A DNA stretch of 64,000 bases from Ostrinia nubilalis (taxonomy: Eukaryota; Arthropoda; Insecta; Lepidoptera; Crambidae). Positions within the stretch are counted from its first letter, which is position 1. Each line of letters opens with the position of its first letter. Of this stretch, positions 1,417-47,860 are shown in pieces. The stretch lies in NCBI RefSeq assembly GCF_963855985.1, contig NC_087117.1:4909001-4973000 (forward strand). Reading direction: 5' to 3'. Position numbers and translations under genes: made by a program. Under the pieces are notes generated by a model, which did not search any database, was not told the origin of the DNA, and saw only the letters and a list, made by a program, of their open reading frames with translations.

Positions 1417-1766
1417 TCTAAATGGAGGAGGCAGCCGACTGCGCCGAAGTAGCTGGAAATAAACATCGAAATTAGCACCTATTTGCTTTGAGTATAAGGT
1501 CGCTTTTTGACTGCACTAAATAAGTGTTTAGATTAGGTTTAGAGATCTAAATGGAGTCAGCTTAGTGCGCCGAAGTAGCTGGAAATAAATATCGAAATTA
1601 GCACGTATTTGCTTTGAGTATACGGTCGCTTTTTGAGTGCACTAAATGAGACTGTTTTGATTAGGTTTAGAGATCAAAATGGCGTCAGCAGCCCACTGTG
1701 CTGAAGTAGCTGGAAATAAACATTGAAATTAGAACGTAACCGACTAGAGTATACGGTCGCTTTTTG
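1417..1766. repeat. Three tandem copies of a ~130-bp unit
   Basis: Copies start near 1417, 1547 and 1673. Each carries GAAGTAGCTGGAAATAAA, an ATTAGCACGTATTTGCTTTGAGTATACGG-like block and GTCGCTTTTTGA. No open frame runs through the copies. They may be an old transposon or minisatellite. Confidence 0.7.
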
Positions 1767-2090
1767 AAGACAGGATTACTGTTCAGGAAAGAGCAGCAGG
1801 CAGCAAATTCAAATTTCCATATAAAAATCTACTGTTTTTAAAAATAATGATTACCAACATGATATGGTAAAGAACTATGACTATCGTTTGGAAGTGAACA
1901 GGCGACATGACTGACTATAACATCATCATCATCATTATATGCCTATACTAGTAGATTGCTATAAGCTTATAATGATATTGAAGGTGAAGATAGATTAGCC
2001 TCTTTTTAAAGGTTTACAGTCTTTAAAATATACCTAGTTATAAATATTTCTGCAAACTAGGCAGTTAAACATCCCAACTTCTGTACTCAC

Positions 2091-2206
2091 CCTTCGTGTT
2101 CCAAGAAGAGTGCCTTCAATGCGCCTCGCGACCAGTACGACATGGCGTAGGATAGAAGCTTCATTGACAACGGATTCACTCGCAGAAAGTTCCCACAGAA
2201 CACCAC
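2091..2206 (-). CDS. PANK: PANK exon 10
   Basis: The acceptor is CTGCAG|GTGGTG and the donor is GAAGG|GTGAGT. It encodes [11 protein letters not shown]...SMKLLSYAM...LKALFLEHE plus two bases of the next codon, the conserved C-terminal strand and helix of animal pantothenate kinases. The phase-2 end requires a further exon, not visible between here and base 1. Confidence 0.92.
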
Positions 2207-5200
2207 CTGCAGAATTAAATACATAGTTTTATTATCACTCAAAATAAAAAAAATGAATATTTATTAGACATGGGGCGGGTAGTGGTTTTGCCGGGTACCC
2301 TGCACAATTTTTGCCGGGTACCCGGTAGCGCTTACAGGTCGTGTGACGTGCGTCTCGCTTGCCCGCTCGGGCGCAACTAAAAGGAAAAAAAACGAAGCCG
2401 CTTAAATGCTTAAACTCACGCCCGTATTCACAAACGATGCTTGCTTAAGTCAGCAAATCGAACGCACAGCGTTGAATAGAGCTCTGTGATTGGTTCGTGT
2501 GTCACCTTGTACGTCCACGCGTACTCGTGAGACCTCATAGTAATGTTTGTAAATACGGGCGTCAGTCACCTTTGATTACCTCTCTAGCAGGTCCATTTAA
2601 TATCCGATAGAGTAACATATACCTTATTCCTTCGACATAAGGTACAAAATCTCTTACCCTCTCATATGAAACAGATTTTAGCAATGGCGCCGAAGATTTT
2701 GCTAAACTATTATCAACCTTACTCCCCAGACATACAGCACTTACCCTCTCAATATTCTCGTTAGAAGCGCACAGCCTGGCAATGGAGCCGATGTTGTTGG
2801 TGATGGTGACGAGAGTGGCCCTAGCGAGGTCCTCCCGAGACACTTTGGCGCGGCGATCAGCCGACGCCATCTGGCCGAAGCTGGGGACATTAAATACAAA
2901 TTAATAATAATTAATTAGGCCTATAGTCTGGTCGCGCCGAGCACGTAGAATTTTGTCCAATGACCCCAAGCTACCTATCCTTATCGCTCGCGCGTAATTA
3001 TATTGCTGTCGCGACTGTGCGACGGGCGCCCGCAGTGAGTGTGCGAGCGCGACAGCAACATAATTACGCGCAAGCGATAAGGATGAGTAGCTTGGGGTCA
3101 TTGGACAAAATTCTACGTGCTCGGAGACCGGGGTTTAGAGATCTTGCGTTCTCAGAGGGGGTAAATATTACCACCCGTTTTAGATGTGAGGTAAAGCGAG
3201 GTTTAGGTTAGCGATAACATTTGCAGAAATTGACTTGTCATAGCTATTTACGCAGTGGTAAACAGCTTGCGGAATTCAACTTCTGGAAGTTTTATTGCTA
3301 GTCTAAACTTCACTTAATATTAGCATGAACAGGAACACCCTCATCACATTCAAATACAAATATCGAATACACTGGCTACCACCCCTCTTGGTAAAAACGA
3401 ATGTGTGCAAGCGAGACAGAAAGCGCTTGTCAGTAAGACTACGCAAGCCCTCAGCGCGGCGACCGTACTTCTGTTGATCGCTTCAACTCTCGCTTCGTGA
3501 CCTATACCGGGTAATAATGAAGAAATGTCATTACTACTGACAGTGTTGTGGTTGGAATGGAGTGATGACGGCTGTAGTGTGGCAAGGCTAGAGAAGATGG
3601 AATGACACGGCACTATCTGACTGAATGACCTCTCTTTCCCACCGCTGCAACTCCTGTGTAGCCAGGATCTACAGCATGACTGCCAAAAACCCAGCCAGTG
3701 AAGGTCAAGTTTGTGGTCAACCCAACCAAGGAATGACAGTAATTGATGCCATTGCTACTGATGGTGTTTGGAGGACTAGAGTTGAATCATCTCGATCGGG
3801 GGGTCCATGGTCCGGAACTTCGGATGACGATATGACGGGTGAATGTCAGAAGTGTCAGAACGCAATGTCAAATTACCTGCATACAATCTGGCTTTCACGA
3901 CTTCCACTTGTCATTAAAAAGAATCCGGAAAGGACATTGTCAGAAATCGCCTAAAAACCGCCCAAAAACATTAACCCATCATAATTATTTTCTAATTTTT
4001 TTAATACATTAAGCACCCTTTCATTCTAATGGACACTTAAGCATTGAAAAGTTAAATAAATAAGTCTTTTAACGTTTATTCTATAATACTATTACAACTT
4101 CCGGACGTTTTGGTGCGTGGCATGGTCTAAAACCTATCAAGTTCCATAATTTTTGCCGATAAAATCTGTACGAGGCATTACCGTACTTTATTGCTGGGAG
4201 TCCATGTATAGTGATGTTCCTGCGGCCATCATAGACAATAAAATATCGATTTTGAAAATAAAATAAATCGATCAAACTGCTTTGAAGACTAGATTTGCGT
4301 TAAAAGCTAAAAAGATATTGACACTATTACAAGAAGCTATTTAAAGTGTCCAACTGGTCGAAGGTCGTAAATAAAATAAAAATAATTAGGACCATAAACT
4401 GATATTCATGGTATCATAACTGTAAAAGTGTCAGAATCCGATGTTGAATCCAATGCTAGTTGAAGTGAGAGAAACATATATCAACCTAGTATAGTTGCCA
4501 GTCTCTCATAATCTATGCCAATGAGGGTTTTCGCGATTGAAAAATCCGCCAGATGGCAATACGTAGACGTGAGGTCCAAATGCGGCATGATTGGTTATTT
4601 TTGACATGACATTGACAGATATGTCAAAATCCACCAATCATGCAGCATTTGGACCTCGCGTCTACGTATTGCCATCTCGCGGATTTTCCAATCGCGAAAA
4701 CCCTCATTCATAGCACATGTATAATAATAGACCAAATGAACTTTTATAGATTGTGAAAGAGAAGATAAAGATTTTATTATTTTATTAAAATCTTGCCCCG
4801 AGGTAGTTTTTCAGTAGAAACCAGGATTGGATAATCGCTACAGGCAAGTATCAGAACGTTTTATAAATATTTTTAATCGGTTATATCCTTATGAATCGTT
4901 TTAATAAATTGTCATTTTACTTTTTCAATTAAAACTTTTTCAATCCCTAGTCTTGTCAAACTGTCATAATGTCAACAAATTATAAATGTCACGTCAGTTG
5001 ACTCAATTTCAGTCTTCTGTGCGTTTTTATTTCAATGAAATAGTGCTAAAGGGTTAGTACTAAAAAAAAGTAACTAAGTAAAAGTGAAAGCCTTTTTTCA
5101 GAAAGAAAACCAATGTGGTGCCCTTATTATAGATGACCCACGCTGAACTGTCCCACCAAACTCAATGACAGGGGGGCGCTACCATCGTTCAACTATATGG

Positions 5201-8200: not shown

Positions 8201-11200
8201 TGGCTATCACAATTTCTATTTGACATTGGCACAAATAAACCTGTTAGATGTTTAAATGTTGTCTATAGACTATAATAATAGCTAGAAGAAGAATCCATGG
8301 TTCGGATGATGATATGACAGATGAATGTCAGAAGTGTCAGAACGATGTCCGTGTCAATGTCAAATTACCTGCATGCAATCAGGTCCCCGAGCAACGCTAG
8401 CATTGGCATGCTGGCTCTCCTGGACCGAGCCGCTATCCTGCACTCAAACAGTGTGAGACTCACCACCGGTACCAGAGCCCACCGGGGAATATGCATGGGT
8501 ATTCGCAATAGGGAATATTATTATTTTTTATCTTTGAAAGTGTAAAATTATGCAATGTCAAATTACCTGCATGCAATCTGGTTCTCACGATTTTCATTTG
8601 ACATTAAGAATATGATGATCCGAAATTTTAGACAGGTGAATATCAGAAGTGTCAGAACGGATGTCAGAGTTAATACAATGTCAAATGGCATGAAATATGG
8701 CTATCACAATATCCACTTGACATTGGCACAAATAAACCTCATAAAGAGATTACCACTAAACAAAAGATCATGGTTCGGAATTTCGGATGACGATGACAGG
8801 TGAATGTCAGAAGTGTCAGAACGGATGTCAATGTCAGATTGTCAAATTACTTGATTGCCCATAAACAAAAGAAGATGGGTCCATGGTACGGATTATGATA
8901 TGGCAGGTGAATGTCAGAAGTGTCAGAACGATGTCAGTGTCAATGTCAAATTACCTGCATGCAATCAGGTCCCCGAGCAACGCTAGCATTGGCATGCTGG
9001 CTCTCCTGGAGCGAGCCGCTATCCTGCACTCAAACAGTGTGAGACTCACCACCGGTACCAGAGCCCACCGGGGAATATGCATGGGTATTGCAATAGGGAA
9101 TACTCATATTTTTTAGCTGTGACATAGCACAAGTTTTCTTTAGTTTTTGACTAACTGGCACTGTGTAAATATCCAATAACATTTATTATTGTCAAATCAT
9201 CTATTTTTTATCGAAAGATGTTATTTATTTATTTATTTTATTTATTTATTTAATAACAATCAATCAAACAATCTTAGCTCTAACATTACAGGTTACCCCA
9301 ATGCGATAGAGTAGATTAATTAGTACATATTTAACAATTAAGATTGCCGCTATGGCTATAACATAAAATAAACAATGTAACCTTTGTGAATTTAGTCAAA
9401 GAACAGCTGAATATGTCAACGGTTCTAGCTACTACATTAAGTGTACGCAACTTATATTGTGTTATACTTTCGTGACGTCCCTTGACTCGTTAAAAGCATA
9501 CGCAGCATCCTTTTTATAACGCACGTATTTTTTTTTATTTCCAGACCGATTTCGATATTTTCTTTACAGGTCTTGTAGGACTAACTTAACTGTGTATTTA
9601 TAAAATAAAATTATCATATTTTGAAATCTATGAATATTCCCCATTGCGTCGATTTCAAAATGAAATATTACTTAGTTACCCATGTATATCAGATAGAGAC
9701 CATGTAACCAGATTTCACCAGAAGAGAAGAATCGATCTGAATGAAGCCTTGCACCAACTTCTTTTCCTTATGCCCGTTACCTGCTCACGTAGGTAGGTTT
9801 GACCAAAGTTCCAAATATGCCATCCCTCTCACGCATAGTAAGATGCCTGCATGAGGGACAGTGATAGGTAGACCAGAAATTACTTCCAGGAGTAGCCACG
9901 AAAGAGAAGACGCAAAAGAATCCAATGGACCAAAGAGAACAATGACAATAGACCCCACCAGGAATAGAATGCTAGACCGCAACCAACATGACACCGAAAC
10001 CAACCTTAAACCACCGAGATCAGACCGTTCTGTTGTCAAAATACTCGATTTTTTACCTTTACCAACCATTTTGAGGCCTTTTAGCCGTTTAAAGGCCTTT
10101 ACAAACCGTTTTGGGACAATTCTGCCGTTTTAAGGCCTTTATAAACCGTCTTTGGGCCTTTTTGCCACTTTTAGGCATATACCATGAGGCCTGCTGTTCC
10201 TTTAAGGCCTTTGTAGCATCTAAGTACGAACTAACGCAACACAATTTAAACTTATATTGTAGCCAACAGATCAACTTTTTGTTCTGGATTATCAAAAACT
10301 GAGTTTAAATTATTGCTTTTAAGGTTCAATTTAGGATAATATTTATATTAATTAAGTTGATCTGCTCGCAACTGAACATTATAAAAGTAATAAACAGTCA
10401 GTGAGAATATAATTATAAATCATCATATTTTGAAACAAATAACCCTAAGAAAAAATGCATTACTACAGTCCGTTTAAATGTCTTTTAAAAACAAAATATT
10501 AAACTATGATTGATCAATCAATATGATAATAATATAATGTAAGATAGCCAGTTCCTCTGTGGTTGAGGATTCTATAGTTTTTTGTAACCACGAGCTTTTT
10601 ACTTGTCTCCCCCACCCTCCTTTTTAGCTACTTTCCCTGCCTCCTACTAAATAGTCTACCCTCTCCCCTTAAACCCCTTACACAAGGGGTGAGAATAGTC
10701 CCTCTCCCCTCTTTATAGTCCCACCTACCCCTTAACTCCTCAAATGTACTCCCTGTCTCCCCTAAATAGTCCCCCATCCCCCTAAACCTTAAAAATCTCA
10801 CCTGCTAGCCACCAAATCTCCCGGCAGTCCGAACCTAGCGTAGTCCCCTCCATAGATGTCCCGCACCAGTTTATCCACAGTGGTGTTGTCTCCAGCCGCC
10901 GCGAGTGATATGGATGGATATTGTCTCTCAAACAAATTTTTGCTGCTTCCCAATATTTTATAGGTTTTGGAAGTTGCAAAACTGGATTCTATCCTCACTA
11001 ATCTATACAACACACTAAATACCTAAATGTGTAGTTAAAAAAAATTCACCCGGAGTCATCAACCACAGATGAACTGGCTATTTTACTGGCATTTCTCAGA
11101 GCCTTTATTTGTCACTCCCTAAAGAGAGGTGGGAATAGTCCCATGCCTCTCCACCTCTCTAGTTACATGGGGGTTGCAACCGTGGGAACGAGAGGTGAGA

Positions 11201-14200
11201 ATAGTCCGTCGCCCTCTAAATAGTTCCACCTACCTCTTTACTCCACAAATTACTCCCTTTCTCCCCTTAAATAGTTCCACCTACCTATTAACTCCTCTAA
11301 ATTACTCCCTGTATCCTCCTAATAGTCCCACCTACCCCTTAACTCCTCTAAATTACTCCCTGTACCCCCTAAATATTCCCCCTCCCACCAACCTCTCAAA
11401 TACCCCTTGCCTCTCACCTGCTAGCGACTAAATCTCCCTAACTCCTCAAATTACTCCCTGTATCCCCCTAAATAGTTCTCCGTTTCCCTAAACCCCTCAA
11501 ATTAATCCTTGTATCCCCCTAAGTAGTCCTCCCTTCCCCCAAACCCCTCAAATTACTCCCTGTCTCCCCCTCAAAACCCCTAGTCTCTCACCTGCTCGCG
11601 ACCAAATCTCCCGGCAGTCCGAACCTAGCGTAGTCCCCTCCATAGATGTCCCGCACCAGTTTATCCACAGTAGTGTTGTCTCCAGCCGCCGCGAGCGATA
11701 TAGCCTCTTCGAAACTGCTGCAGCCGGTTAGAAGGCAGCAGAGGCCAAGGAAAGTCCCACCTCCTAAGCTGGAATTGGAGATAATTAAATTAATAAAAGT
11801 TCTAGAGTGGCGACCCCGAACCGACACATTCTAGCAAGAAAAACTTTTGACTTCGAATCGCCATCAAAAGATTTATTATGAAAACTTAGTTAGCGTCCCG
11901 TGTAAACGTGACGTAAAGTACTAAGTTGTAGTATGAGAAATGGTAGCACGAAACTAATTTTAACCATCGAGATCGTCCCGTTATAGTTGAATTCGAAGGC
12001 TGGGTATCGAATTTTGTCATCCTTGGGGGATGCCTTTGTCCAGCAGTGGACGTCATTTGGCTGAAACGACGACGGCGACTATATTTTTTATGGCTCTATC
12101 GGGAACCGAACTGCTCACCTAGTGCCGCTGACGCGGTAATAGTCGTCCGGAGCGTTGACCACCAGCACAGACACGCCGCTCCCGATGTTGACCAGTAGGA
12201 ACGGGTACTAATAATCCCTAAATTATATGTGAAAGTAACTCGTCTGTCTGTCACTCTTTCACGCCTAAACCACTGAACCGATTTTGATGGAATTAGGGAT
12301 AGAAATAATTTGAGTCCCGGGAAAGGACATAGGATAGATTTTAGCCCGTGTTTTGAAACAGGGACGCGCGCGATAAAGTTAATTTATAAATACTATAAAA
12401 AATGATGACTCCACTGGGAACCAAACTGCTCACCTAGTGCCGCTAACGCGGTAACTGGACTTAACTGAGTCAGCCGTTATAAGATAAGATAAGCCGCCTA
12501 AATATAATATCGAGCATCTTTGTAATATTCACCTAGTGCCGCTGACGCGGTAATAGTCATCTGGAGCGTTGACCACCAGCACAGACACGCCGCTTCCGAT
12601 GTTGACCAGTAGGAACGGCTGACTCAGTTAAGCGCTAAAGTCCGGTCGCCGAGCACGTAGAATTTCGTCCGATGATCCCAAGTTACCCATCCCTATTTAT
12701 ATTGCTGTCGCGACTGTGCGACAGGCGGCCGCAGTGAGTGTGCGAGCGCGACAGCAATATAATTACGCGAGAGCGATAAGGATGGGTAGCTTGGGTTCAT
12801 TGGGCGAAATTCTACGTGCTCGACGACCGGACTTTAGACCTATAATATCGAGCATCTTTGTAATATTCACCTAGTGCCGCTGACGCAGTAATAGTCGTCG
12901 GGTGCGTTGACCACCAGCACAGACACGTCGCTTCCGATGTTGACCAGTAGGAACGGGTACTTATAAATAATTTGAAGTCTATAATTTCTTTATGGCTCTA
13001 CCGGATATCGAACAGACGCGGGCGCGTTGATCACTATAGTCTGGTCCGTGAGCATGTAGAATTTCGGCCAATGACCCCAAGCTACCTATCCTTATCGCTC
13101 GCGTGTAATTATATTGCTGTCGCGACTGTGCGACAGGCGGCAGCAGTGAATGTACGAGCGACCAGACTTTAGTACAGACACGCCACTCCCAATATTGGCC
13201 AGTAGGAACATGCACTGTAAGCAATGAGGGCTATCGTTTTAGCGCTCACCAGTTAGCGCCACTGTAGAGTAAGGTCCTGTCACTTGCTAGTAGCGAAGAC
13301 AGTGGCACCAACTGGTGAGCGCGAAAGTGGTAGGAGGACTATCGCATTTGCACTCATCAAGATGGCGCCACTGTAGAGGTCCTGTCAATCGCCAACTGTT
13401 AAGTATAAAAACGATAGCCCTCATTGAATAAGACTATATTTTTTATGGCTCTATCGGGAACCGAACTGCTCACCTAGTGCCGCTGACGCGGTAATAGTCG
13501 TCCGGAGCGTTGACCACCAGCACAGACACGCCGCTTCCGATGTTGACCAGTAGGAACAGCTGACTCAGTTAAGCGCTAAAAGTCCGGTCGCCGAGCACGT
13601 AGAATTTCGCCAATGATCCCAAGCTACCCATCTTTATCCCTCGCGCCTATTTATATTGTTGTCGCGACTGTGCGACGGGCGGCCGCAGTGAGTGTACGAC
13701 AGTAATATAATTACGCGAGAGCGATAAGGATGGGTAGCTTGGGGTCATTGGGCGATATTCTACGTGCTCGGCGACCGGACTTTAGACCTATAATATCGAG
13801 TATCTTTGTAATATTCACCTAGTGCCGCTGACGCGGTAATAGTCATCCGGAGCGTTGACCACCATCACAGACACGCCGCTCCCGATGTTGACCAGTAGGA
13901 ACGGGTACTAATAATCCCTAAAAACTAACTCGTCTGTCTGTCACGCTTTCACGCCTAAACCACTGAACCGATTTTGATGGACTTAGGGATAGAAATAATT
14001 TGAGTCCCGGGAAAGGACATAGGATAGATTTTAGCCCGTGTTTTGAAACAGGGACGCGCGCGATTAAGTTTTTCTGTGACAGACAAAATTTCACGCGGGC
14101 GAAAGCTAGTAATTTATGAATGCTATAAAAAATTATGACTCCACTGGGAACCGAACTGCTTACCTAGTGCCGCTGACGCGGTAATAGTCGTCCGGAGCGT

Positions 14201-17200
14201 TGACCACCAGCACAGACACGCCGCTTCCGATGTTGACCAGTAGGAACGGCTGACTCAGTTAAGCGCTAAAGTCCGGTCGCCGAGCACGTAGAATTTCGTC
14301 CGATGATCCCAAGTTACCCATCCCTATTTATATTGCTGTCGCGACTGTGCGACGGGCGGCCGCAGTGAGTGTGCGAGGGCGACAGCAATATAATTACGCG
14401 AGAGCGATAAGGATGGGTAGCTTGGGGTCATTGGGCGAAATTCTACGTGCTCGGCGACCGGAATTCAGACCTATAATATCGAGCATCTTTGTAATATTCA
14501 CCTAGTGCCGCTGACGCGGTAATAGTCGTCCGGAGCGTTGACCACCAGCACGCCGCTCCCTATGTTGACCAGTAGGAACGGCTGACTCAGTTAAGCGCTA
14601 AAGTCCGGTCGCCGAGCACGTAGAATTTCGTCCGATGCTCCCAAGCTACCCATCCTTATCCCTCGCGCCTATTTATATTGTTGTCGCGACTGTGCGACGG
14701 GCGGCCGCAGTGAGTGTGCGAGCTCGACAGCAATATAATTACGCGAGAGCGATAAGGATGGGTAGCTTGGGGTCATTGGGCGAAATTCTACGTGCTCGAC
14801 GACCGGACTTTAGACCTATAATATCGAGCATCTTTGTGATATTCACCTAGTGCCGCTGACGCGGTAATAGTCATCGGGAGCGTTGACCACCAGCACAGAC
14901 ACGCCGCTTCCGATGTTGACCAGTAGGAACGGGTACGGGCTTGAGAAGTCAAACGGTTTGCGCACGTAGAGACTTAGAGCCGCCTCGGAGTATGGTGGCT
15001 GGAACAAATACAAAATAATTACACATTGTTTTTTATAATTATAATAAGGATTTCTTAAGGAACACTAAAAAAATTAGAACAAAATATTGCACTAAAACAT
15101 ACCAAAATTGAATTGAGAAACGCCTATTGTTGAAGTCGGTCAAAAAGGGATTCCTCACGCTGGCTTTGGCTTTTTTTTCCTACTAATATTATAAATGCGA
15201 AAGTTTGTGTGGATGTTTGTTACTCTTTCACGCAAAAACTACTGAACGGATTTTGATGAAACTTTACAGTATTATTGTTTATAACCCAGAATAACATATA
15301 GGCTATAATTTATGACGATCTGTGACAAACTAAATTTCACGCGGGTGAACGCGGGCCAAAAGTTAGTATTTTTATACTTTTTTACCGTTTTCAAAAAAGA
15401 TTCCAATTCATCTGTATTTTTTAGGGTGTCCGCCAAATCCTCCATTTGCCTCTATCTGGTAAATTATTAAAGGTCGTGCGTACGGTCGTGCCTCTGCAGG
15501 GATGACAAAATGACCTGTTGTTGATGAAAACAATGATAACGATGATAATGAAGGTAATGATGATGTTAATAACGATTATGACAAAAATGATGAAGACTCA
15601 CCGAATCGCCAGGCTGCCTGTGGGCAGGTTACTCATCTATCTGAGCCCTACTAGTAGTACAGAAGACCAAGAAGAAATAAGAAGAAGACTCACCGAATCC
15701 CCAGGCTGTCTATGGACGGGTTGCTTATCAGGCGGCGCCCAGTAGTAGCACTCCTGAGCGTTCATAGCGTCCACGAAGAGAACGCCCGCGATTAATGCTT
15801 CCAACTCGTCTATCCAGAAGACTTACCGACTCGCCAGGCTGACGACAGAGTTGTCCCGAAGAAAAATACGAAGAATCAACAAGACAGTGATCTTCCCGTG
15901 ACGCCTAGTAGGAGCCCAGAAGGATCAAGGCATTAGTGGGTTAGTCATCCAACAGCTTCCAGTAATAGCCCATAAGAAGACCAAAAAGAGAATCCAAAAG
16001 AAGACACCCAATCTGTGGGTTTCTCTTCTGTCAGTCTGCATCCTAGTAGTAACACGGAAGAACAAGAAGAAAGAACACACCGGGTCACCGTGTCACTTAT
16101 CAGGCGAAGTCCAGTAGTAATAGTAGCCCAGAAAAACAAGAAGACTCGCTGAATCATTGGGTTTCTCTTCTGCCAGTCTGCATCCTAGTTATAGCTCAGA
16201 AGAAGAATAAGAAAAATACTTACCAAGTCTTTTTGTGTAGCCTAGTAGGAGCCAAGAAGAAGACTCGCTGAATCTATGGGTTTCTCTTCTGCCAGTCTGC
16301 ATCCTAGTTATAGCTCAGAAGAAGAATAAGAAAAATAATTACCAAGTCATCTGGCGTAGCCTAGTAGGAGCCAAGAAGAAGACTCACCAAATCTGCAGAC
16401 TTCTCTTCTATGTATCTGTCTGCATCCTAACAGCAGCACAGAAGAAATAAGAAGAAGACTCACCGAATCCCCAGGCTGTCTATGGACGGGTTGCTCATCA
16501 GGCGGCGCCCAGTAGTAGCACTCCTGAGCGTTCATAGCGTCCACAACTAAAACGCCTGCGGTCAATGCATCCAGCTCGTCTATCCAGAAGACTTACCCAG
16601 TCGCCAGGCTGACGACAGAGTAGACCCAGAGAAGAAAAGACGAAGAAGAATCAACAAGACAGTGATCTTCCCGTGACGCCTAGTAGGAGCCCAGAAGAAC
16701 CAAGGCATTAGCGAGTCATCCAACAGCGTCCAGTAGTAGCCCATATGAAGACGAAAAAGAAAAACCAGAAGAAGACATCCAATCTATGGGTTTCTCTTCT
16801 GTCAGCCTGCACCCTAGTAGTAACACGGAAGAACAAGAAGAAAGAACACACCGTGTCACTTATCCGGCGACGTCCAGTAGTAATAGTAGCCCAGAAAAAC
16901 AAGAAGACTCGCTGAATCTATGGGTTTATCTTCTGTCAGTCTGCATCCTAGTTATAGCTCAGAAAAAGAATAAGAAAAATACTTACCAAGTCATCTGGCG
17001 TAGCCTAGTAGGAGCCAAGAAGAAGACTCACCGAATCTGCGGGTTTCTCTTCTATGTATCTGTCTGCACCCTAACAGCAGTATAGAAGAAATAGAAGAAG
17101 ATTGACCTCTGTGAGTCTTCTTCCACTGGCGACTCTTCGCCAGGCTGCCTGTGGGCAGGTTACTCATCTATCTGAACCCTACTAGTAGTACAGAAGATCA

Positions 17201-20200
17201 AGAAGAAAGAAGAAGAAGACTCACCGAGTCTCCAGGCTGCCTATGGACGGGTTGCTCATCAGGCGGCGCCCAGTAGTAGCACTCCTGAGCGTTCATAGCG
17301 TCCACAAATAAAACGCCCGCGAGCAATGCATCCAGCTCGTCTATCCAGAAGACTTACCAAGTCGCCAGGCCGACGACAGAGTAGTCCCAAAGAAAAAGAC
17401 GAAGAAGAATCAACAAGACTGGTCTTCCCGTGACGCTTAGTAGCAGTCCAGAAGAATGAAGGCATTAGTGAGTCATCCAACAGCGTTCAGTAGTAGACGA
17501 AAAAGAGAAATCAAAAGAAGACACCCAATCCGTGGGTTTATCTTCTGTCAGTCTGTCTAGTTGTAGCTCAGAAGAAGAATAAGAAAAATACTTACCAAGT
17601 CATCTGGCGTAGCCTAGTAGGAGCCAAGAAGATGACTCACCAAATCTGCAGATTTCTCTGCTATGTATCTGTCTGCATCCTAACAGCAGCACAGAAGAAA
17701 TAGAAGAAGACTGACCTCTGTGAGTCTACTTCCACTGGCGACTCTTCGCCAGGCTGCCTGTGGGCAGGTTACTCATCTATTTGAGCCCTAGTAGTAGTAC
17801 AGAAGAACAAGAAGAAAGAAGAAGAAATAAGAAGAAGACTCACCGAATCCCCAGGCTGTCTATGGACGGGTTGCTCATCAGGCGGCGCCCAGTAGTAGCA
17901 CTCCTGAGCGTTCATGGCATCCACAAATAAAACGCCTGCGATCAATGCATCCAGCTCGTCTATCCAGAAGACATACCGAGTCACCAGGCTGACGACAGAG
18001 TAGTCCCGAAGAAGAAAAAGACGTAGAAGAATCAACAAGACAGCGGTCTTCCCGTGACGCCGAGTAGGAGCCCAGAAGAACCAAGGCATTAGCGAGTCAT
18101 CCAACAGCGTCCAGTAGTAGCCCATAAGAAGACGAAGAAGAAAAATAAGAAGACTCACCAAATCTATGGGTTTCTCTTCTGTCAGTCTGCATACTAGTAG
18201 TAATACGGAAGAACAAGAAAGAAGAACACACCGGGTCACCGTGTCACTCATCCGGCGACGTCCAGTAGTAATAGTAGCCCAGAAAAACAAGAAGACTCGC
18301 CGAATCTATGGGTTTATCTTCTGTCAGTCTGCATCGTAGTTGTAGCTCAGAAGAAGAATAAGAAATAGACTTACCAAGTCATCTGGCGTAGCCTAGTAGG
18401 AGCCAAGAAGAAGACTCACCGAATCTGCGGGTTTCTCTGTCTGCATCCTAACAGCAGCACAGAAGAAATAGAAGAAGACTGACCTCTGTGAGTCTTCTTC
18501 CACTGGCGACTCTTCGCCAGGCTGCCTGTGGTCAGGTTACTCATCTATCTGAGCCCTAGTAGTAGTACAGAAGAACAAGAAGAAAGAAGAAGAAATTAGA
18601 AAAAGACTCACCGAATCGCCAGGCTGCCTATGGACGGGTTGCTCATCAGGCGGCGCCCAGTAGTAGCACTCCTGAGCGTTCATAGCGTCCACGAATAAAA
18701 TGCCCGCGATTAATGCATCCAGCTCGTCTATCCAGAAGACTTACCGAGTCGCCAGGCTGACGACAGAGTAGTCCCGTCACCGTGTCACTCATCCGGCGAC
18801 GTCCAGGTAATAGTAGCCCAGAAAAACAAGAAGACTCGCTGAATCTATGGGTTTCTCTTCTGTCAGTCTGCATCCTAGTTGTAGCTCAGAAGAAGAATAA
18901 GAAAAATACTTACCAAGTCATCTGGCGTAGCCTAGTAGGAGGAGCCAAGAAGAAAACTCACCAAATCTGCAGACTTCTCTTCTATGTATCTGTCTGCATC
19001 CTAACAGCAGCACAGAAGAAATATTTGCCAGGCTGCCTGTGGGTTACTTATCTATCTGAGCCCTACTAGTAGTACAGAAGAAGAAGAAGAAATAAGAAGA
19101 AGACTCACCGAGTCGCCAGGCTGTCTATGGACGGGTTGCTCATCAGGCGGCGCCCAGTAGTAGCACTCCTGAGCGTTCATAGCGTCCACGAATAAAACGC
19201 CTGCGATCAATGCGTCCAGCTCGTCGAGCTTCGATAGACTCATGTTCACTTCCTGGTGGGGACAAAATGATTATTGGTTAGTTGGCGTCATTAGCAAATA
19301 ATTCCATGACACATGTCTAAGGCTGTGCACCAACTTACTCTAACCGTAACTTTAACAATAACCGGTGTTTTTTGTATGGAGTTTGACAGATTTTTGATAA
19401 AACAGCAGGAAAACCCAATTTTCTACTAAAGCCTGGTCCGTGAGCACGTAGAATTTTGTCCAATGATCCCAAGCTACCCATCCTTATCGCTCGCCCGTAA
19501 TTCTGTTGCTGTCGCGCTCGCACACTCACTGCGTGCGCCCGTCGCACAGTCGCGATAGCAATATAATTACGCGCGAGCGATAAGGATGGGCAGCTAGGGG
19601 TCATTGGACCAAATTCTACGTGCTCACGGACCAGGCTTTAGAAAGAGTAATCTAAATTAGGAATAGTACTGGACCGAACATAGTACCTTGATGAAGTCCT
19701 AAAAATGCTTTAGTGGCCCGAGTTTCTTGCGCTGTTTTATCTTAGGAAAAGTCCAAACCACATTACTGTGAGACGTGTAAAAATGCTCTTTAAAATCCAG
19801 TTTATATTTTTATGAGGAATGATGCTGGTTGCTTCCAACCGAGGAATTCCTTCAGCAGTGGACGTCATATGTCTGTAATGATGGTGATGATGAATTACCT
19901 TGATGAAGTCCTCCTCAAATTTGTAAGCGCCGCCGCCGGTCGCGTATATAGTGTTGACCAGGTCGGCCATGCCTTTGGACCGGGCCAGCTGCAGGAAGGC
20001 ACCCACTTCGGACGTAGGGAACCGTATGAAGTGGAGGGTGGGAAAATAAATATCTACATTCTATCTACACTAGGAACAGTACTGGTCCGAACATAGTACC
20101 TTGATGAAGTCCTCAAACTTTAAAACACCGCAACCTATCACCTATAACGCATTGTCTACAGTGTTACTAGATGCAGAAGATTCATAACGTGTTGCCAAAA

Positions 20201-23200
20201 CTAGCCTAAAACTGCAGGAAAAACCAATTTTCTGCTATGAATAGTAATTTACACTAGGAATAGTACTGGTCAAAAGATAGTACCTTGATGAAGTCCTGCT
20301 AAAACTCAGGCAGCTTCATAATACAATAGATACCTACCATTGTGGGCTGTTAACTAGCTTCACTGTGGGTAAAATAATCTACAAGAAAAGTTATTTACAC
20401 TAGGAATAGTACTGGTCTGAACATAGTACCTTGATGAAGTCCTCCTCAAACTTGTAAGCGCCGCCGCCGGTCGCGTATATAGTATTGACCAGGTCGGCCA
20501 TGCCTTTGGACCGGGCCAGCTGGAGGAAGGCACCCACTTCGGACGTAGGGAACCGTATGAAGTGGAGGGTGCCGCGACGACCGCGGATTTGGACGTTGTC
20601 CATCTGTGGGTAAAAAAATAAATAACTTTATTGACACACACAACAAAAAAGTTAAGAAACGCAATAACAATAGGAAATGTGAATCGAGAGGACTGACGCT
20701 TCGTTTTAGACATCATGATCTGACACTGATCTGTGTTTGCCTCACGCAGGACCTCTTCTTAAGTTATACAGGGTGTTGATTTCAATCCTCGCCATATTTA
20801 TTTAGGTGATCTATTATGACTTACATAAACGCATTCGTTCGTTCGTTTCAGTCAAATGACGTCCACTGCTGGACAAAGGCCTCCCCCAAGGTTTTCCACA
20901 TAAACGCATTATCCACCAAAAAAAATTTACAAACGAAAGTGGAATTTTTAGCGAATATTTTCCGTGCGACCAACTGTATTGTGGCTCGCAATACTGTAAT
21001 AATAATGTTTACACTGCGGCACCATCGAGCTACGCGGATTGCTCGCTTATCATGTCGGATAGCCTACTGAAGGAAGCCAAGTAAAGTAGGTAGTGTAAAT
21101 AGGTATTTTTCTTTGACTGACTAAAGTTAAAGATCGTTTTAATTTTTTTTCTAAGCCAATTTTTTACTGATTCGTGATCAGATTATGCTACTTAATCAAT
21201 TCCCTAGATATGGCGAGGATTGAAAGCAACACCCTGTATAGGGATTATTTAATTACTTTTAGCAACAAAGCACACCGGTTTTATAGGCGTCAAAAATATA
21301 ATCAAAGATACAACAAAACACAAAAGAGTAAATTAATAGCTAAAAGGATGTGCGTTTTGCACAGCCAGTATGGTGAGTTTTCCATCGTAATCACTATCTA
21401 CGTAATCATAGTTAGCTTGAGAATGAAGAATAGTAGTGGAAATAACGAGTCAGGGAACATTACAACGCCATCTATTGACACATGTATTGAACATCGATTC
21501 TTTAATAAACTCCACCGCGATTCAGAGTACACACAGCGCCATCTCTTACTATATTAAGGAATAACTTTTCAAGTACGGTACTAATAATTCCTACCTGCAG
21601 ATGCACGTCTCGCCGGCCAGTGTTTCCATAAGCCGCGTTCCTGGTGAGGTACCGGCGGATGTTCTTGAGCACCTCCGTTTCCTTGTCGATCTCCTTGCGG
21701 TACATCTCTAAAGTCCGGTCACCGAGCAGATAGAATTTCGTCCAATAACCCCAAGCTACCCATCCTTATCGCTCGCGCGTAATTATACTGCTGTCGCGAC
21801 TGTGCGACGGGCGGCCGCAGTGAGTGTGCGATAAGGATGGGTAGCTTGGGGTCATTGGACGAAATTCTATCAGCTCGGCGACCGGACTTAATTCGATGGT
21901 TTCGACTGTCGATAGTGAGACTATATGTACCTGTAGATGCACGTCCCGCCGGCCAGTGTTCCCATAAGCCGCGTTCCTGGTGAGGTACTGGCGGATGTTC
22001 TTCAGCACCTCGGTTTCCTTGTCGATCTCCTTGCGGTTCGTCTCTAGTCGATGGTCCCGACTATCGATAGTGAGACTAATGATTCCAAACTATTGATAAT
22101 AAAGACGATAATGTAACTATTGCTGGTTCCGATTATCGACAGTGAGACTATCAATGGTTCGGGCTATCAATAGTGACACTATCGACATTTACGACTATCA
22201 ATAGTCAAATTATCGACATTTCCGACTATCGAAAGAGAGATTAACGATGTCGATGGCAATAACTATCAATAGTGAGACCATCGACTTTTCCGACTATCAA
22301 AAGAGAGACTATCGACTTTTCCGACTATCAAAAGAGAGACTATCGACATTTCCGACTATCAATAGTGAGACTATCGATAATAACTATCGATGGGTCCGAC
22401 TATCAATAGTGAAGTGAAACTATCGACATTTCTGAATATCGATAGACAGTTTTACTATCAATAGTGAAGTGAAACTATCGACATTTCTGAATATCTATAG
22501 ACAGTTTTAACTTTAAATAATCGTGATAAATACCTGTAGATGCACGTCCCGCCGGCCAGTGTTGCCATAAGCCGCGTTCCTAGTGAGGTACCGTCGGATG
22601 TTCTTGAGCACCTCCGTTTCCTTGTCGATCTCCTTGCGGTTCGTCTCTAGTCGGTTTAGATACAACCATCGACAGTGAGACTATCGACATTTGTGACCAT
22701 CGATGTTAGTAACTATCAACAGTGAGACCATCGATGGAATATCGAAAGTGAGACTTGATAGTTCCGACTATGGATATAGTCTGGTCCGTGAGCACGTAGA
22801 ATTTTGTCCAATGACCCCAAGCTACCCATCCTTATCGCTCGCGCGTAATTATGTTGCTATCGCGCTCGAACACTCACTGCGGGCACCAGTCGCACAGTCG
22901 CGACAGCAATATAATTACGCGCGAGCGATAAGGATGGGTAGCTAGGGGTCTTTGGACAAAATTCTACGTGCTCACGGACCGGGCTTTAGTGAGACTATAT
23001 TATTATGAACCTGCAAATGCACGTCCCGCCGGCCAGTGTTGCCATAAGCCGCGTTCCTGGTGAGGTACCGGCGGATGTTCTTCAGCACCTCCGTTTCCTT
23101 GTCGATCTCTTTGTATTTCGTCTCTAGTCGATGGTCCCAACTATCGATAGTGAGACTCTAATGATTCCGACTATCGATAATGTAACTATTGCTGGTTCCG

Positions 23201-26200
23201 ATTATCGACAGTGAGACTATCAATGGTAGTAACTATCAATAGTGAGACCAGCATCGACTTTTCCGACTATCAATTGTCAAATTATCGACATTTCTGACTA
23301 TCGAAAGTGAGACTATCGATGGTAGTAACTACCGATAGTGTGACTATCGACATTTCTAACTATAGACAGTGAGACTATCAATGGTTCGGGCTATCCATAG
23401 TGACACTATCGACTTTTCCGACTATCAATAGTCAAATTATCGACTTTTCGGACAATCGAAAGTGAGACTACCATTTCTGACTATAGACAGTGAGACTATC
23501 GATGGTAGTAACTACCGATAGTGAGACTATCGACATTTCTGACTATCAAAAGAGAGACTATCGACTATCGATAGTGAGACTATCGATGGGTCCAACTATC
23601 AATAGTGAAGTGAAACTATCGACATTTCTGAATATCGATAGACAGTTTTAACTATAAATACCTGCAGATGCACGTCCCGCCGGCCAGTGTTCCCATAAGC
23701 CGCGTTCCTGGTGAGGTACCGGCGGATGTTCTTCAGCACCTCCGTTTCCTTGTCGATCTCTTTCTATTTCGTCTCTAGTCGATGGTCCCGACTATCGATA
23801 GTGAGACTCTAATGATTCCGACTATCGATAATGTAACTATTGCTGGTTCCGATTATCGACAGTGAGACTATCAATGGTTCGGGCTATCAATAGTGACACT
23901 ATCGACATTTCCGGCTATCAATAGTCAAATTATCGACATTTCCGACTATCGAAAGAGAGACTATAGATGGTAGTAACTATCGATAGTGAGACTATCGACA
24001 TTTCTAACTATAGACAGTGAGACTATCAATGGTTCGGGCTATCAATAGTGACACTATCGACATTTCCGACTATCAATAGTCAAATTATCGACTATCGATG
24101 GTAGTAACTATCAATAGTGAGACCATCGACTTTTCCAACTATCAATAGAGACTATCGACATTTCCGACTATCGATAGTGAGACTATCGATGGTTTCGACT
24201 ATCAATAGTGAAGTGAAACTATCGACATTTCTGAATATCGATAGACAGTTTTAACTTTAAATAATCGTGATAAGTACCTGTAGATGCACGTCTCGCTTGC
24301 CAGTGTTCCTATAAGCCGCGTTCCTAGTAAGGTACCGGCGGATGTTCTTGAGCACCTCCGTTTCCTTGTCGATCTCCTTGCGGTTCGTCTCTAGTCGATT
24401 TAGATACAACCATCGACAGTGAGACTATCGACATTTGTGACCATCGATGTTAGTAACTATCAACAGTGAGACCATCGATGGAATATCGAAAGTGAGACTT
24501 GATAGTTCCGACTATGGATATAGTCTGGTCCGTGTCCGCGTCTGTGCGACGGGCGCCCGCAGTGAGTGTTCGAGCGCGATAGCAACATAATTACGCGCGA
24601 GCGATAAGGATGGGTAGCTAGGGGTCATTGGACAAAATTCTACGTGCTCACGGACCGGGCTTTAGTGAGACTATATTATTATGAACCTGCAAATGCACGT
24701 CCCGCCGGCCAGTGTTCCCATAAGCCGCGTTCCTGGTGAGGTACCGGCGGATGTTCTTCAGAACCTCAGTTTCCTTGTCAATCTCCTTGCGGTTGGTTTC
24801 GCGTGGTTCGAAGTATACCAGCTTGGTTAATGTGCCGCCGATGTCCATGCCGAACCAGGGCATTGCTGGAAGGAATTGTAAATATTGGATTAACTGGAAC
24901 TGATTTTAATGGGTCTATTTGAACTAGAGGAAGGTTGAAGGCACAGGTGTGGATTGATCAGTGTGCTTAGTGCAAGTTTACATTCAAATCACAAACCACA
25001 GCTCTGCAATAAGGGCTATCGTTTTTATACTTAACAGTTGGCACCCCTGGCGATTGACAGGACCTTACTCTACAGTGGCGCCATCTTGATGAGTGCAAAT
25101 GCGATAGTCCTCCTACCACTTTAGCGCTCACCAGTTGGCGCCACTGTCTTCGCTACTAGCAAGTGACAGGACCTTACTCTACAGTGGCGCCAACTGGTGA
25201 GCGCTAAAACGATAGCCCTCATTGGATTACCTAGCTACTTACTAACGAAAAACATAATGATTAGATTGAACATCATTGCTAGCGACTGCGTAAAAATAAT
25301 ATGAAATGTATGACAGATTGTACAGTAGTAGATACTTTCAAGTACTAAAATCTTTTAGATTTTTTTGCGGCACTCGCTAGCTATGTTAGATGATTTTAGT
25401 TCTTGGAAGTAACCTATAGGTTTTTGTCATTTTTTTACGCAGTCCTTAGCGATGACGTTTGGTGTGAACTCGCACTTAGCCCACGGATAGTAAGCACACT
25501 GGTCAAAACCGAACCCAATGGTCCATTCTACGAAACTACAAGAAAGGTTGCAATACGGGAGGAATGGCGATATAATTGTACTTCATCATCATTTCAGCCA
25601 CAGGACGTCCACTGCTGAACACAGGCCTCCCGCAATGATTTCCACAATGAGCGGTTGGTAGCGGCCTGCATCCAGCGCCTTCCTGCTACCTTTATGAGGT
25701 TGTCTGTCAGGTCTACCTTGTGAGTTGACGTTTTACGCTGCGCTTTCCGGTACGTGGCCTCACTCCAGACTCTATACAATATACTTACGAGGTGCATTAT
25801 TGTCTGGAGGCGTTGGAGGCGCGGGCTCCGCCATCTTGGCAGCGCTATTGTCTTTGCTCATCTTCGGGGGCGAGTAGGGGGAGCGTCTCGCACGTTTTAG
25901 AAGTTTACTCCTGAAATATAATACAATAAATTAAGAATTAATGAATAAGTAAATCTTCAAATGGGTCTGACGCAGAATGTGCACTTCGGAAAATACGCAT
26001 TATACAAATGTTAGGCTCAGTTTCCAAAGAGGCGGAGTAGTGCGGAGATGTGCGGCGAAGCTGGCAGGCTATTTCCACCAAAGCCGAGCGGAGAAGAGTG
26101 AAGCGTTGCGGAGACGAGATGTGTGAACTGTGCGTAGCTGTCAGCTGTCAGTCTATTGCTATCTATGAAACACCGCACGGATCCGCACATCTCCGCACTG

Positions 26201-29200
26201 CTCCGCTCTTCTTCAACCCTTCTCCGCATCCAGCCGCGCCGAAGCCGCTTTATGCCAAATAAACCACTATGGTATTTTTACGCAAACATCACAATTACTC
26301 AATACAGTTTCCTTGATTAAATAACGATTCAAGATCTGGTGAGATATAAATAGCACGTAACGGATAATTCATTTCCCTGTAGACTAGTGTTGTCCATAGC
26401 ACAGTATCGATAGTCGAAGAAAAACTAGGAGACGTAAAACGTCTTGGTATCGATAGTCAAAACGAAAGTAGGAGATGCAAAATAAGAGATTTCAAACTTT
26501 GACATCTTGCTAGATATCTACTATCGGCATTTTCGAGGTCTTGCTTGGGTATACTGTTTAAACAAAAGTAATACGTAAATCGTCCGCATAATTCAACCTG
26601 TGTAGTGAAAAGCGACAGGGGTCATCCATAAAGTACTGTTGTGACATAATTTATGTGTTTCGTGATTTATTTAACGTTCTCCAGTCCTTGTCATTTTCAT
26701 TTTCTTGTCAGTGTGACGTAACATATTTTACAATTTGACATCCAGAAATTATTGAATTAAAACAGCAGTTCCAAAATAGTATCTTATATCACTAACAGCT
26801 GTCTATATTAAGAATTTATTTTGAGTTAAAGCACATCTTTTCATCGTGACATTTTCGTACTATAATCGATGAATGGTTTATAACATTTTCAGCGACATAT
26901 CTATCGATACTCAAACTATCGATAACAGCCACATCACTACTGACAATGGGGCTGTGATGCAAGTCATTTTATAGGCCGCACGATGTCATAACGCATCGTT
27001 GATAAGAAATAAACCATAAAAAGTAGATATCGAATCATGTAAGTATTTTTTATTGTAAGTTCGTGAAGTTTGCTCATTATACTCTATTTTATTTTGGTAA
27101 TTTATCTACACTAATATTAATATTTTATTGAACACGTCTAAAAACGCTACAGACAGTCGCTTTGAAAGAGCTTATTGGACTTTCATATTTCATAAAATAA
27201 TATGACTTTTGATGAAATATGAAAGTCCAAAATTATTGTGACAGGGGGTGGATATGATGTCAATTGTTTAATTTCCTCACGGATATTGAACCTCATTATC
27301 CCTAAGATAATGGTATAAAATAAATAAGGGAAATTCAACTTCATACCTTAAACGTTAAAGTTTAATATTAATTTGGTTCTCTATTGTGGCAGGTTCATTT
27401 ATGATGTCAATTGTTTTAGAATTAATTTCCTCAATGGATTTTGAATTTCATATCCTCAAGATAAAAATGGTAAAATTTTTAAATAATAGATTTTATTTAA
27501 CAATTAACAAAACATTCAAGTCCAAAATCTACTTGGCATTTATGTACTGCAGATTGGTAATGCCAAGTAGATTTTGATTTTTGAAACAATTGACAATTCA
27601 ATTGTATCAAGACACAATCACAAATGCATTTTGAACTCTATACCCTTGACATATAGTTCGATTGCGCAAATTTTGACAACATGCGTTCATTTAATGTCTT
27701 CCAGACTGCAGAAAAGAGGGTAAGGTTGTACAAACCTGGTCAAAGTGGGTAAATCTCACTTATTTGTTGAGATGCAGTCAATTGTTTTCCAAATGAAATT
27801 TGAACTCCATGCCTTTGACATAAATAAGTATTCCCGACTGCAGTAAATGAGGGTAATGTTGTACATACCTGGTCAAAGTTATAAAATTATAAATGCGAAA
27901 GTAACTCTGTCTGTCTTGCTTTCACGCCTAAACCACTAAACCGATTTTATTGAAATTTGGCATAGACATAGTTTGAATCCCGGTAAAGGACATAGGATAG
28001 TTTTTATCCCGGTTTTTGAAACAGCGCGACAAAGTTTTTCTGTGACAGACAAAATTCCACGCGGGCGAAGCTGCGGGCGGAAAGCTTGTAAACTATAGTC
28101 TAGTCCGTGAGCACGTAGAATTTTGTCCAATGACCCCAAGCTACCCATCCTTACTGCTCGCGCGTAATTATGTTGCTATCGCGCTCGCACACTCACTGCG
28201 GGTGCCAGTCGCACAGTCGCGGGGTCATTGGACAAAATTCTACGTGCTCACGGACCGGGCTTTATAAGTATTAAATTCCCGACTGCAGTAAAGAGGGTAA
28301 TGTTGTACAAACCTGGTCAAAGTGGGCAGCGGCGCCGCGGGTGCACGTCGCCCGCACGCCGCGAGACACCCCTCACAACGGTGCAAACGCATCTGTGGAC
28401 AAAACAGTCATCATCATCATCATCGTTGTGAAGAAGTATAAGTTGACGCCCGTTTGATGTAGTCAGCAGACCCCTCTTTCCCAATGGACACTTCGGGCAC
28501 GTGCCCAGGGCATCGCGACCGAGCCTCCCCTTGATCCTTAAGTGTCCAGGGCCCCCAAGTAGGTTAAAGACGGCCCTGGATGTAGTCGGTTGCCAGGTCC
28601 AAAAACACAAAAGCCGGACTCGGTGCTTAATATTTGGCCGGTAATTTTACCCTAAAGCCGGTATAAATACTCTTTTTTCCTTGAAGTCAGAAATTTGATA
28701 TCATCATTTAATTTTTTTTAATTTTCATACAAAATAAATTTAATAAAATCCGATTTGTATGAAAATGAATATAATTAAAATGAAGATATCAATTTTCTGA
28801 CTTCACCATACCATTTATATGCCCATGTTAACATGGGCTAGTGTCGGCTCATATACCCATTTACCTAACACCCTGTAGATTTTGTGGTAGCAATTTTTTT
28901 TGTCTTTTTGGTGCCCCCAAACACTGCCCTAATTTTTTTATTAATTTGCAAGTTAGGTTATTGACACTGAAAACCTATTTTTTTCTATTTCTATTTATAG
29001 AGCCGGAACAACCAATGAAAATGGAGTCATGAGTGACGTTTAGTCTTCAATTTCACGATAACTGTCACTATACCGACTGACACACCAAACTTATCGTGTG
29101 CAATTTTTGATAAGATAATTTCTGCCACAAATACGGACACGATTATCTAAATCATATCCTCATAGGGGATCGCCGTTAGTCAATGAGGATTATGGTATAC

Positions 29201-47495: not shown

Positions 47496-47860
47496 TGCCA
47501 TAGATAAGTATGTGGTCTATCGTACTAAAGCCTTATCGGAAACCGATTTGTTCGGGAGGCTAGATGTCGCGTGAAACCATTCATGATGACTCTCAAAAAC
47601 AGAATCAGAAGTGAGATGGGTATAAAATAAATTCTTCAACAAGGTTTTGTTGCCTTTTTTGAAGAAGAGTATCACCACACTTCTGTGCCATGCCGTAGGC
47701 ATTTTTCCCTCAAGGATGACGGAATCGAATAGCTTCTAAAGAGCCTTTAGTACCGGCGTTCCGCCTGATTTCAGAAGCTCAGCCGTGATTCCATCATCGC
47801 CCGGTGCCTTGTTGTTTTTCAGCTGTTTGAGAGCCATTCTAATCTCGTACAGACACGTCC
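47496..47860 (-). pseudogene. RTE reverse-transcriptase pseudogene, left arm, upstream part
   Basis: The minus strand reads the RTE RT start (NNKAPGDDGITAELLKSGGT, then AWHRSVVILFFKKGNKTLLK) with stops and shifts. It is the mirror of 49215-49500. It has about 60 extra bp (47583-47645) absent from the right arm, so this arm keeps the more complete sequence. Confidence 0.85.

What the first reader, a model, noticed from the sequence alone, without database searches (positions are those of the whole stretch)
10802..28392. Six PANK exons each followed by tandem truncated copies with the same polarity
Seen: exons 2, 4, 5, 6, 7 and 8 all have extra copies in the intron immediately downstream (2 scraps, 6, 1+3 scraps, 5, 8, and 1+1 scrap). 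Every copy keeps the exon 3' part, the donor and the intron start; none has the acceptor or 5' part. The complete exon is always first in transcription order. Inference: a tandem duplication whose unit starts inside the exon and ends in the downstream intron gives this layout and leaves the first exon functional. Six independent cases with the same polarity in one gene, with exons 9-10 and 3 spared, suggest a process that starts near 5' splice sites (for example co-transcriptional R-loop or repair-driven slippage), or selection for extra donors. I know of no described gene with this pattern.
Basis: partly seen in the sequence, partly recalled or inferred. Interest (0 to 1): 0.92.

Follow-up and report, generated by a model that had tools for sequence, protein, structure and literature searches.

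The report
Exon-end repeat arrays in moth genes
In this moth the tail ends of a number of protein-coding exons, each with its splice donor, have been copied repeatedly into the intron just behind them, on that same side in every case found, and many of the older copies still look like protein-coding sequence.

Summary
One intact pantothenate kinase (PANK) gene lies on the minus strand. Exons 2, 4, 5, 6, 7 and 8 each have 5'-truncated copies in the next intron; exons 3, 9 and 10 have none. Apart from a few fragments, copies keep the exon's 3' part and donor.

It is not peculiar to PANK. Checks of kinase, helicase and kinesin exons in the same 495-Mb genome gave 16 more arrays in about 15 genes. 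With PANK: 22 donor-side arrays, no acceptor-side one. PANK models of Mythimna and Plutella also carry a 3'-part copy, of exon 6 and exon 7.

Best reading: tandem duplication starting inside an exon and ending in its intron, then unequal exchange. Copies behind the true donor leave with the intron; copies ahead of the true acceptor would disturb splicing. Whether breaks are also favoured near donors is open.

One result is unexplained. In 10 arrays the copies differ from the exon mainly at third codon positions (81/34/356 at positions 1/2/3), which my neutral and conversion simulations do not reproduce. Some young arrays look neutral. No RNA data and no relatives' DNA were available.

The parts
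28313..28392 (-). PANK exon 2 (complete)
27699..27879 (-). two short copies of exon 2 end + donor + intron start (27830-27879, 27699-27749)
25789..25910 (-). exon 3 (no copies found)
24687..24865 (-). exon 4 (complete)
21593..24391 (-). array of six exon-4 3'-part copies: 24276-24391, 23660-23763, 22899-23113, 22532-22647, 21828-22044, 21593-21701, with a 31-bp minisatellite between
20430..20603 (-). exon 5 (complete)
19640..20306 (-). exon-5 copies: long 19896-20040; short 20239-20306, 20062-20154, 19640-19700
19109..19252 (-). exon 6 (complete)
15583..18759 (-). exon-6 array: copies' exon parts 18612-18728, 17844-17960, 17225-17341, 16464-16580, 15694-15810, plus older 76-78% scraps
14847..14998 (-). 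exon 7 (complete)
12115..14581 (-). exon-7 array: seven copies reaching the donor (exon parts 14502-14581, 14164-14249, 13819-13908, 13474-13557, 12871-12960, 12533-12618, 12119-12208) and fragments 13171-13209 (no donor), 12430-12454; palindromic inserts between
11592..11768 (-). exon 8 (complete)
10716..11438 (-). exon-8 copy 10716-10911 and scrap within 11240-11438 (51/102-bp minisatellite)
2745..2880 (-). exon 9 (no copies found)
2091..2206 (-). exon 10 (no copies found)

Best explanation
These are donor-anchored exon-end tandem arrays. A tandem duplication whose upstream end falls inside an exon and whose downstream end falls in the following intron leaves the complete exon and its donor first and puts a 5'-truncated copy (exon 3' part, donor, intron start) behind it. 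Unequal exchange then multiplies the unit, mobile elements and minisatellites enter it, and old units decay. Shown: the layout, its spread over about 16 genes of this genome, the single polarity in the sample, an intact PANK frame. Inferred: the polarity survives because copies behind the true donor are removed with the intron, the true donor being made first, whereas copies ahead of the true acceptor would offer a decoy acceptor first and damage the mRNA. Also inferred, and weaker: duplications start preferentially around exon ends.
For: Six PANK exons. Kinase exons on C21 (four copies, 163/167-bp units), C2 (13 copies, 181/182-bp units), C1, and C11 (seven copies, mostly 123-bp units). Helicase exons on C19 (ten copies, 12-22-bp spacers), C8, C10, C22 (35-bp unit of exon end plus donor, 13 repeats) and C15. 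Kinesin exons on C4, C20, three places on C1, C18 and C11. Three of these (C11 kinase, C18 and C11 kinesin) were fetched to see whether overlapping matches hid a counterexample; they proved donor-side, and three others fetched for the same reason had no repeats. No acceptor-side array was seen in the 342 listed matches (138+92+93+19; for kinases only 125 of 666 and for AAA 19 of 132 candidates were scored), in 60 loci compared at DNA level with 1.5 kb on both sides, or upstream of PANK exons. In potato RdRp a duplication across an intron-exon boundary made a new intron (PMC4974935, abstract), as the filter idea expects for the acceptor side.
Against: A splicing filter alone predicts many intron-only arrays. 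PANK has six donor-touching arrays and two repeat clusters that touch no exon (7359-9122 in intron 8 and 1427-1767 behind exon 10); the 60 sampled loci had three exon-overlapping and two non-exon repeats at the threshold (one more, L029, at a lower identity). That is fewer intron-only arrays than I would expect, but the numbers are small. The filter does not explain why six of nine placed PANK exons are affected against about 5% in the sampled families, nor the third-position bias.
Confidence: 0.55

Rival explanations
1. Mutational hotspot: breaks or replication/repair slippage start at exon-donor boundaries (for example transcription-linked R-loops), so arrays are born there; selection plays little part in polarity.
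For: 22 of 22 exon-overlapping arrays touch the donor side; two layers of different age lie at the exon 6 donor; donor-touching arrays are not outnumbered by intron-only ones in PANK or the 60 loci.
Against: No break map and no common motif sought by script; copy starts lie 11-145 nt from the donor in different PANK exons, not at a fixed place. The same polarity follows from a splicing filter.
Confidence: 0.3
2. The copies are kept by selection: they are used as coding sequence, either spliced into minor transcripts by weak acceptors or used as templates that renew the exon 3' end.
For: Differences fall at third codon positions (81/34/356 in 10 arrays); exon-copy pN/pS 0.02-0.13 in six multi-copy arrays, 0.05 in L071 and L073; exon parts have 0, 0 and 1.8 gap positions per 100 bp in the e4, e6, e7 arrays against 10.6, 8.0 and 3.3 in aligned intron; GT in 63 of 66 copies. 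Simulated neutral copies with conversion gave 0.45 or more in all 27 parameter sets. An AG stands within 2 nt of the copy start in 24 of 33 copies scanned, not independent and without a chance control.
Against: Acceptors are weak and phases inconsistent; L061 units have 12-22-nt spacers; copies in L061, L071 and L076 carry a stop or frameshift. Young arrays look neutral: L080 exon-copy 1 synonymous to 7 nonsynonymous, L040 pN/pS 0.50, copy-copy differences in L040 and L075 all nonsynonymous. Synonymous sites are about three times more diverged than alignable intron next to them, which simple constraint does not predict.
Confidence: 0.15
3. A mobile element carrying exon fragments inserted them (Helitron-like capture).
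For: Palindromic elements with CTAAAGTCC-like ends sit inside several arrays (by eye).
Against: Copies stay beside their own exon in one orientation; all 13 PF03630 matches of the genome lie in this locus (16 of 16 candidates scored); by eye no such insert in L040, L061, L074, L075, L080.
Confidence: 0.03
4. Assembly artefact.
For: No reads were available.
Against: PANK copies are about 72-98% identical with private changes; contigs of 7.5-19.7 Mb in the loci fetched; 16 other arrays with the same polarity; partial copies in protein models of two other moths.
Confidence: 0.02

Closest known systems
Tandem exon duplication / mutually exclusive exon clusters (Dscam type; PMC6071210, passages seen)
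   Same: Tandem copies of an exon with flanking intron, parent exon intact
   Different: Copies lack the 5' part and the parent acceptor, encode nearly the same peptide rather than variants, and lie behind the parent exon
[quoted passage not shown] PMC4974935, abstract)
   Same: A duplication crossing an exon-intron boundary that duplicates splice signals
   Different: There the boundary of intron 1 and exon 2 (acceptor side) was duplicated and a new intron is used; here the donor side is duplicated and the copies lie inside the old intron
Minisatellites / intronic tandem repeats (recalled)
   Same: Head-to-tail arrays; L059 is a plain 35-bp minisatellite
   Different: The unit contains exon 3' end and donor, one polarity, codon-position signature in older arrays
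Silent cassette systems (antigenic variation, immunoglobulin V pseudogenes; recalled, not searched)
   Same: 5'-truncated silent copies beside an expressed one
   Different: No diversification of the encoded peptide; exchange not shown

Membership tests
Mutually exclusive exon cluster | Each copy has its own acceptor and donor | tested here: not met
   PANK copies lack the parent acceptor; AGs near copy starts have weak pyrimidine tracts and mixed phases
Mutually exclusive exon cluster | Copies encode variant peptides used one at a time | tested here: not met
   Copies encode nearly the same peptide; usage not testable without RNA
Intron gain by tandem duplication | Duplicated boundary creates a new spliced intron | not testable with these tools
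   No transcripts; the PANK frame needs no new intron
Tandem duplication array | Head-to-tail units sharing breakpoints, same orientation, next to the source | tested here: met
Helitron or other capture | Dispersed copies bounded by element termini | tested here: not met
   PF03630 matches only at this locus
Coding exon under purifying selection | dN/dS well below 1 in the copies themselves | tested here: inconclusive
   Older arrays met it, several young ones not, and synonymous sites exceed intron divergence

The most novel reading that the evidence does not exclude
Exon ends in this moth keep giving off silent copies, and parent exon and copies go on exchanging sequence: old copies are spare, coding-competent exon ends that can renew the exon, and array-bearing exons turn over synonymous sites several times faster than their introns. 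It would be a genome-wide, donor-polar recycling of coding sequence, not mere debris.
Probability: 0.2. Interest if true: 0.93.

Novelty: new variant of a known kind. Interest (0 to 1): 0.85.

Why it matters
If about 5% of exons carry such arrays (16 of roughly 311 in the families sampled, a rough figure), this genome offers a large natural experiment on where tandem duplications arise in transcribed genes, which ones splicing tolerates, and how introns grow. The single polarity gives a test between mutation bias at 5' splice sites and selection by splicing order. The codon signature in older copies, if it stands, needs a process that the models I tried do not contain. It also matters for annotation: gene models in Mythimna and Plutella appear to have taken such copies as exons.

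Tried and rejected
Rejected or left unsettled: (1) Copies as complete alternative exons: no inherited acceptor, mixed phases. (2) Exon-internal donor joined to a copy start: looked at by eye in the alignments, no GT at the matching base (in exon 7 a GT lies one base away); not scripted. (3) Snapshot copies decaying neutrally: by my own algebra at most about 0.44 of differences would be synonymous; the four arrays with one long copy (e5, e8, L071, L073) gave 25 synonymous of 28 (P 7.7e-7 against 0.44). (4) Neutral copies with gene conversion: 27 parameter sets of 12 runs, exon-copy pN/pS 0.45-1.13, copy-copy 0.62-0.91; population-level selection was not simulated. (5) Donor GT conservation as proof of donor selection: copies are not independent. 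(6) GC3 of array exons against other PANK exons: 0.61-0.78 against 0.54-0.76, no clear difference. (7) Further insert-bearing PANK proteins: exon 6 insert only in Mythimna among 36 hits; for the exon 7 insert the top 120 of 2698 hits were judged by coverage and identity and only Plutella stood out. (8) Literature: the listings showed nothing describing such arrays; one search was about the Loxostege genome, one search failed. (9) PF00005, PF00063 and PF00118 listings were never obtained.

Dropped before counts: of the 22 arrays, the codon total uses 10; the five kinesin arrays L074-L078 are, L039 (no differences in its four copies) and L040, L080, L079 (identical copy); e2, L059 and L084 were not analysed for codons. 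One search used only 26 of 107 pairs, those with alignable introns, which favours low intron divergence. One overlap of matches (C10:14726145 and 14731457) was not fetched. In one search the script stopped with an error after L080; L079 was redone.
Full report
What is there. The window lies on a 7.5-Mb contig (C30) of a 495-Mb genome in 52 contigs. Its PANK protein is closest to Loxostege sticticalis, a crambid moth (95%), so the source is probably a related moth (inference). Exons 2 to 10 were placed by frame and splice sites; residues 63-426 of the joined frame align with human PANK1, E 4.4e-143.

The arrays. Each exon with flanks was compared with the whole window, and copies were aligned. 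Six exons have copies in the intron immediately downstream, all 5'-truncated, all in transcription order after the complete exon. Exons 3, 9 and 10 have none at E 0.01, and nothing of 18 nt or more is found within 2.5 kb upstream of any exon. The exon 6 intron shows a second layer of 76-78% copies beside the 92-95% ones, so the process recurred at one exon.

Not one gene. The kinase listing (138 matches; 125 of 666 candidates scored) showed three places where the same model segment is repeated next door; all three proved donor-side arrays. The helicase listing (92 matches, 130 of 130 scored) gave three and a DNA comparison of 30 of its loci two more. The kinesin listing (93 matches, 111 of 111 scored) gave five. 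The AAA listing (19 matches, 19 of 132 scored) gave none. While checking this report I fetched six further places where matches overlap by part of the model, as possible counterexamples: three were again donor-side arrays (a kinase on C11 with seven copies, kinesins on C18 and C11), three had no near repeats. The C11 kinase copies are not in the listing, so the listings miss arrays. Total: 22 arrays, all donor-side, in about 16 genes; two of the C1 kinesin arrays lie 24 kb apart and are taken as one gene. The 30 best kinase loci, compared at DNA level, showed none; many of those matches are long and open. The parent exon's acceptor was seen by eye for most, but not located for L059, L061, L074, L079, L080 and L084. 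If both sides were equally likely, 16 of 16 outside PANK has probability 1.5e-5, and 15 of 15 genes 3e-5; PANK itself prompted the search and is left out. Listed matches minus copies are about 311 (135+80+77+19), so 16 is about 5%; this is rough.

Other moths. Of 37 aligned top PANK proteins, two carry an insert that repeats an exon 3' part: Mythimna separata (exon 6 part, same peptide as its own exon) and Plutella xylostella (exon 7 part). Both are gene models, so they point to DNA copies behind those exons, not to use of the copies. Region searches showed no third case within what was listed.

How it most likely works. A duplication from inside an exon into its intron yields this layout in one step; the same start shared by many copies (exon 6 from nt 28 in five of five main copies) fits multiplication of one founding unit by unequal exchange. 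Why the donor side only is inferred: copies behind the true donor are lost with the intron, and the true donor is transcribed first; copies ahead of the true acceptor would present a decoy acceptor first. The potato case of a duplicated intron-exon boundary that became a new intron (abstract) fits. Yet intron-only repeat clusters do not outnumber the donor-touching ones: two against six in PANK, two against three in the 60 loci. So a starting preference near exon ends remains a strong rival.

The puzzle. In PANK the minimum changes among copies are 35 synonymous and 14 nonsynonymous against a neutral share of 0.26 (P 6e-11); counted from that list, all 14 nonsynonymous changes are private to one copy while 16 synonymous ones are shared by two or more sequences. 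In ten arrays of six genes (44 copies) exon-copy differences at codon positions 1, 2, 3 are 81, 34, 356 over near-equal numbers of sites. Exon-copy pN/pS is 0.02-0.13 in the six multi-copy arrays among them and copy-copy 0.08-0.17. Results against a simple story of constraint: stops or frameshifts in copies of L061, L071 and L076; shared nonsynonymous changes in L061 and L041; the young arrays L080 (1 synonymous to 7 nonsynonymous, pN/pS 2.3) and L040 (0.50) look neutral, and copy-copy differences in L040 and L075 are all nonsynonymous; five kinesin arrays are intermediate at 0.08-0.30. In 26 of 107 pairs with alignable introns, intron divergence is 0.076, pS 0.231, pN 0.025: synonymous sites are more, and nonsynonymous sites less, diverged than intron. 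That would be expected if exon parts of copies trace back through a functional exon in a way the intron parts do not, but my simulations of exchange did not reach ratios below 0.45. I leave this unexplained.

Names such as PAK-like, ULK-like, obscurin-like or INO80-like used in my notes are recalled guesses; only the Pfam families come from calls (listings).

Noticed in passing
window 45070-47496, minus strand: Two long open frames resembling a non-LTR retrotransposon (559 aa reverse-transcriptase-like, 243 aa RNase H-like; named by eye).
   Followed up: no
window 1427-1767 and 7359-9122: Tandem or near direct repeats in PANK introns without exon sequence: a 126-bp unit about 320 bp behind the exon 10 donor, and several repeat pairs in intron 8.
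   Followed up: partly
exon 4 and 7 arrays; L039, L041: A palindromic, MITE-like element with CTAAAGTCC...GGACTTTAG-like ends sits in several arrays (by eye).
   Followed up: partly
starts of copies in PANK e4, e6, e7; L041, L072, L073: An AG stands within 2 nt of the point where similarity to the exon begins in 24 of 33 copies scanned, with weak pyrimidine tracts; no chance control was run.
   Followed up: partly
L059 (C22, helicase exon): A 35-bp minisatellite whose unit is the last ~15 nt of the exon plus the donor, 13 repeats.
   Followed up: partly
Mythimna separata P0002, Plutella xylostella P0016: Database protein models appear to include partial exon copies as coding sequence, probably annotation errors.
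   Followed up: partly
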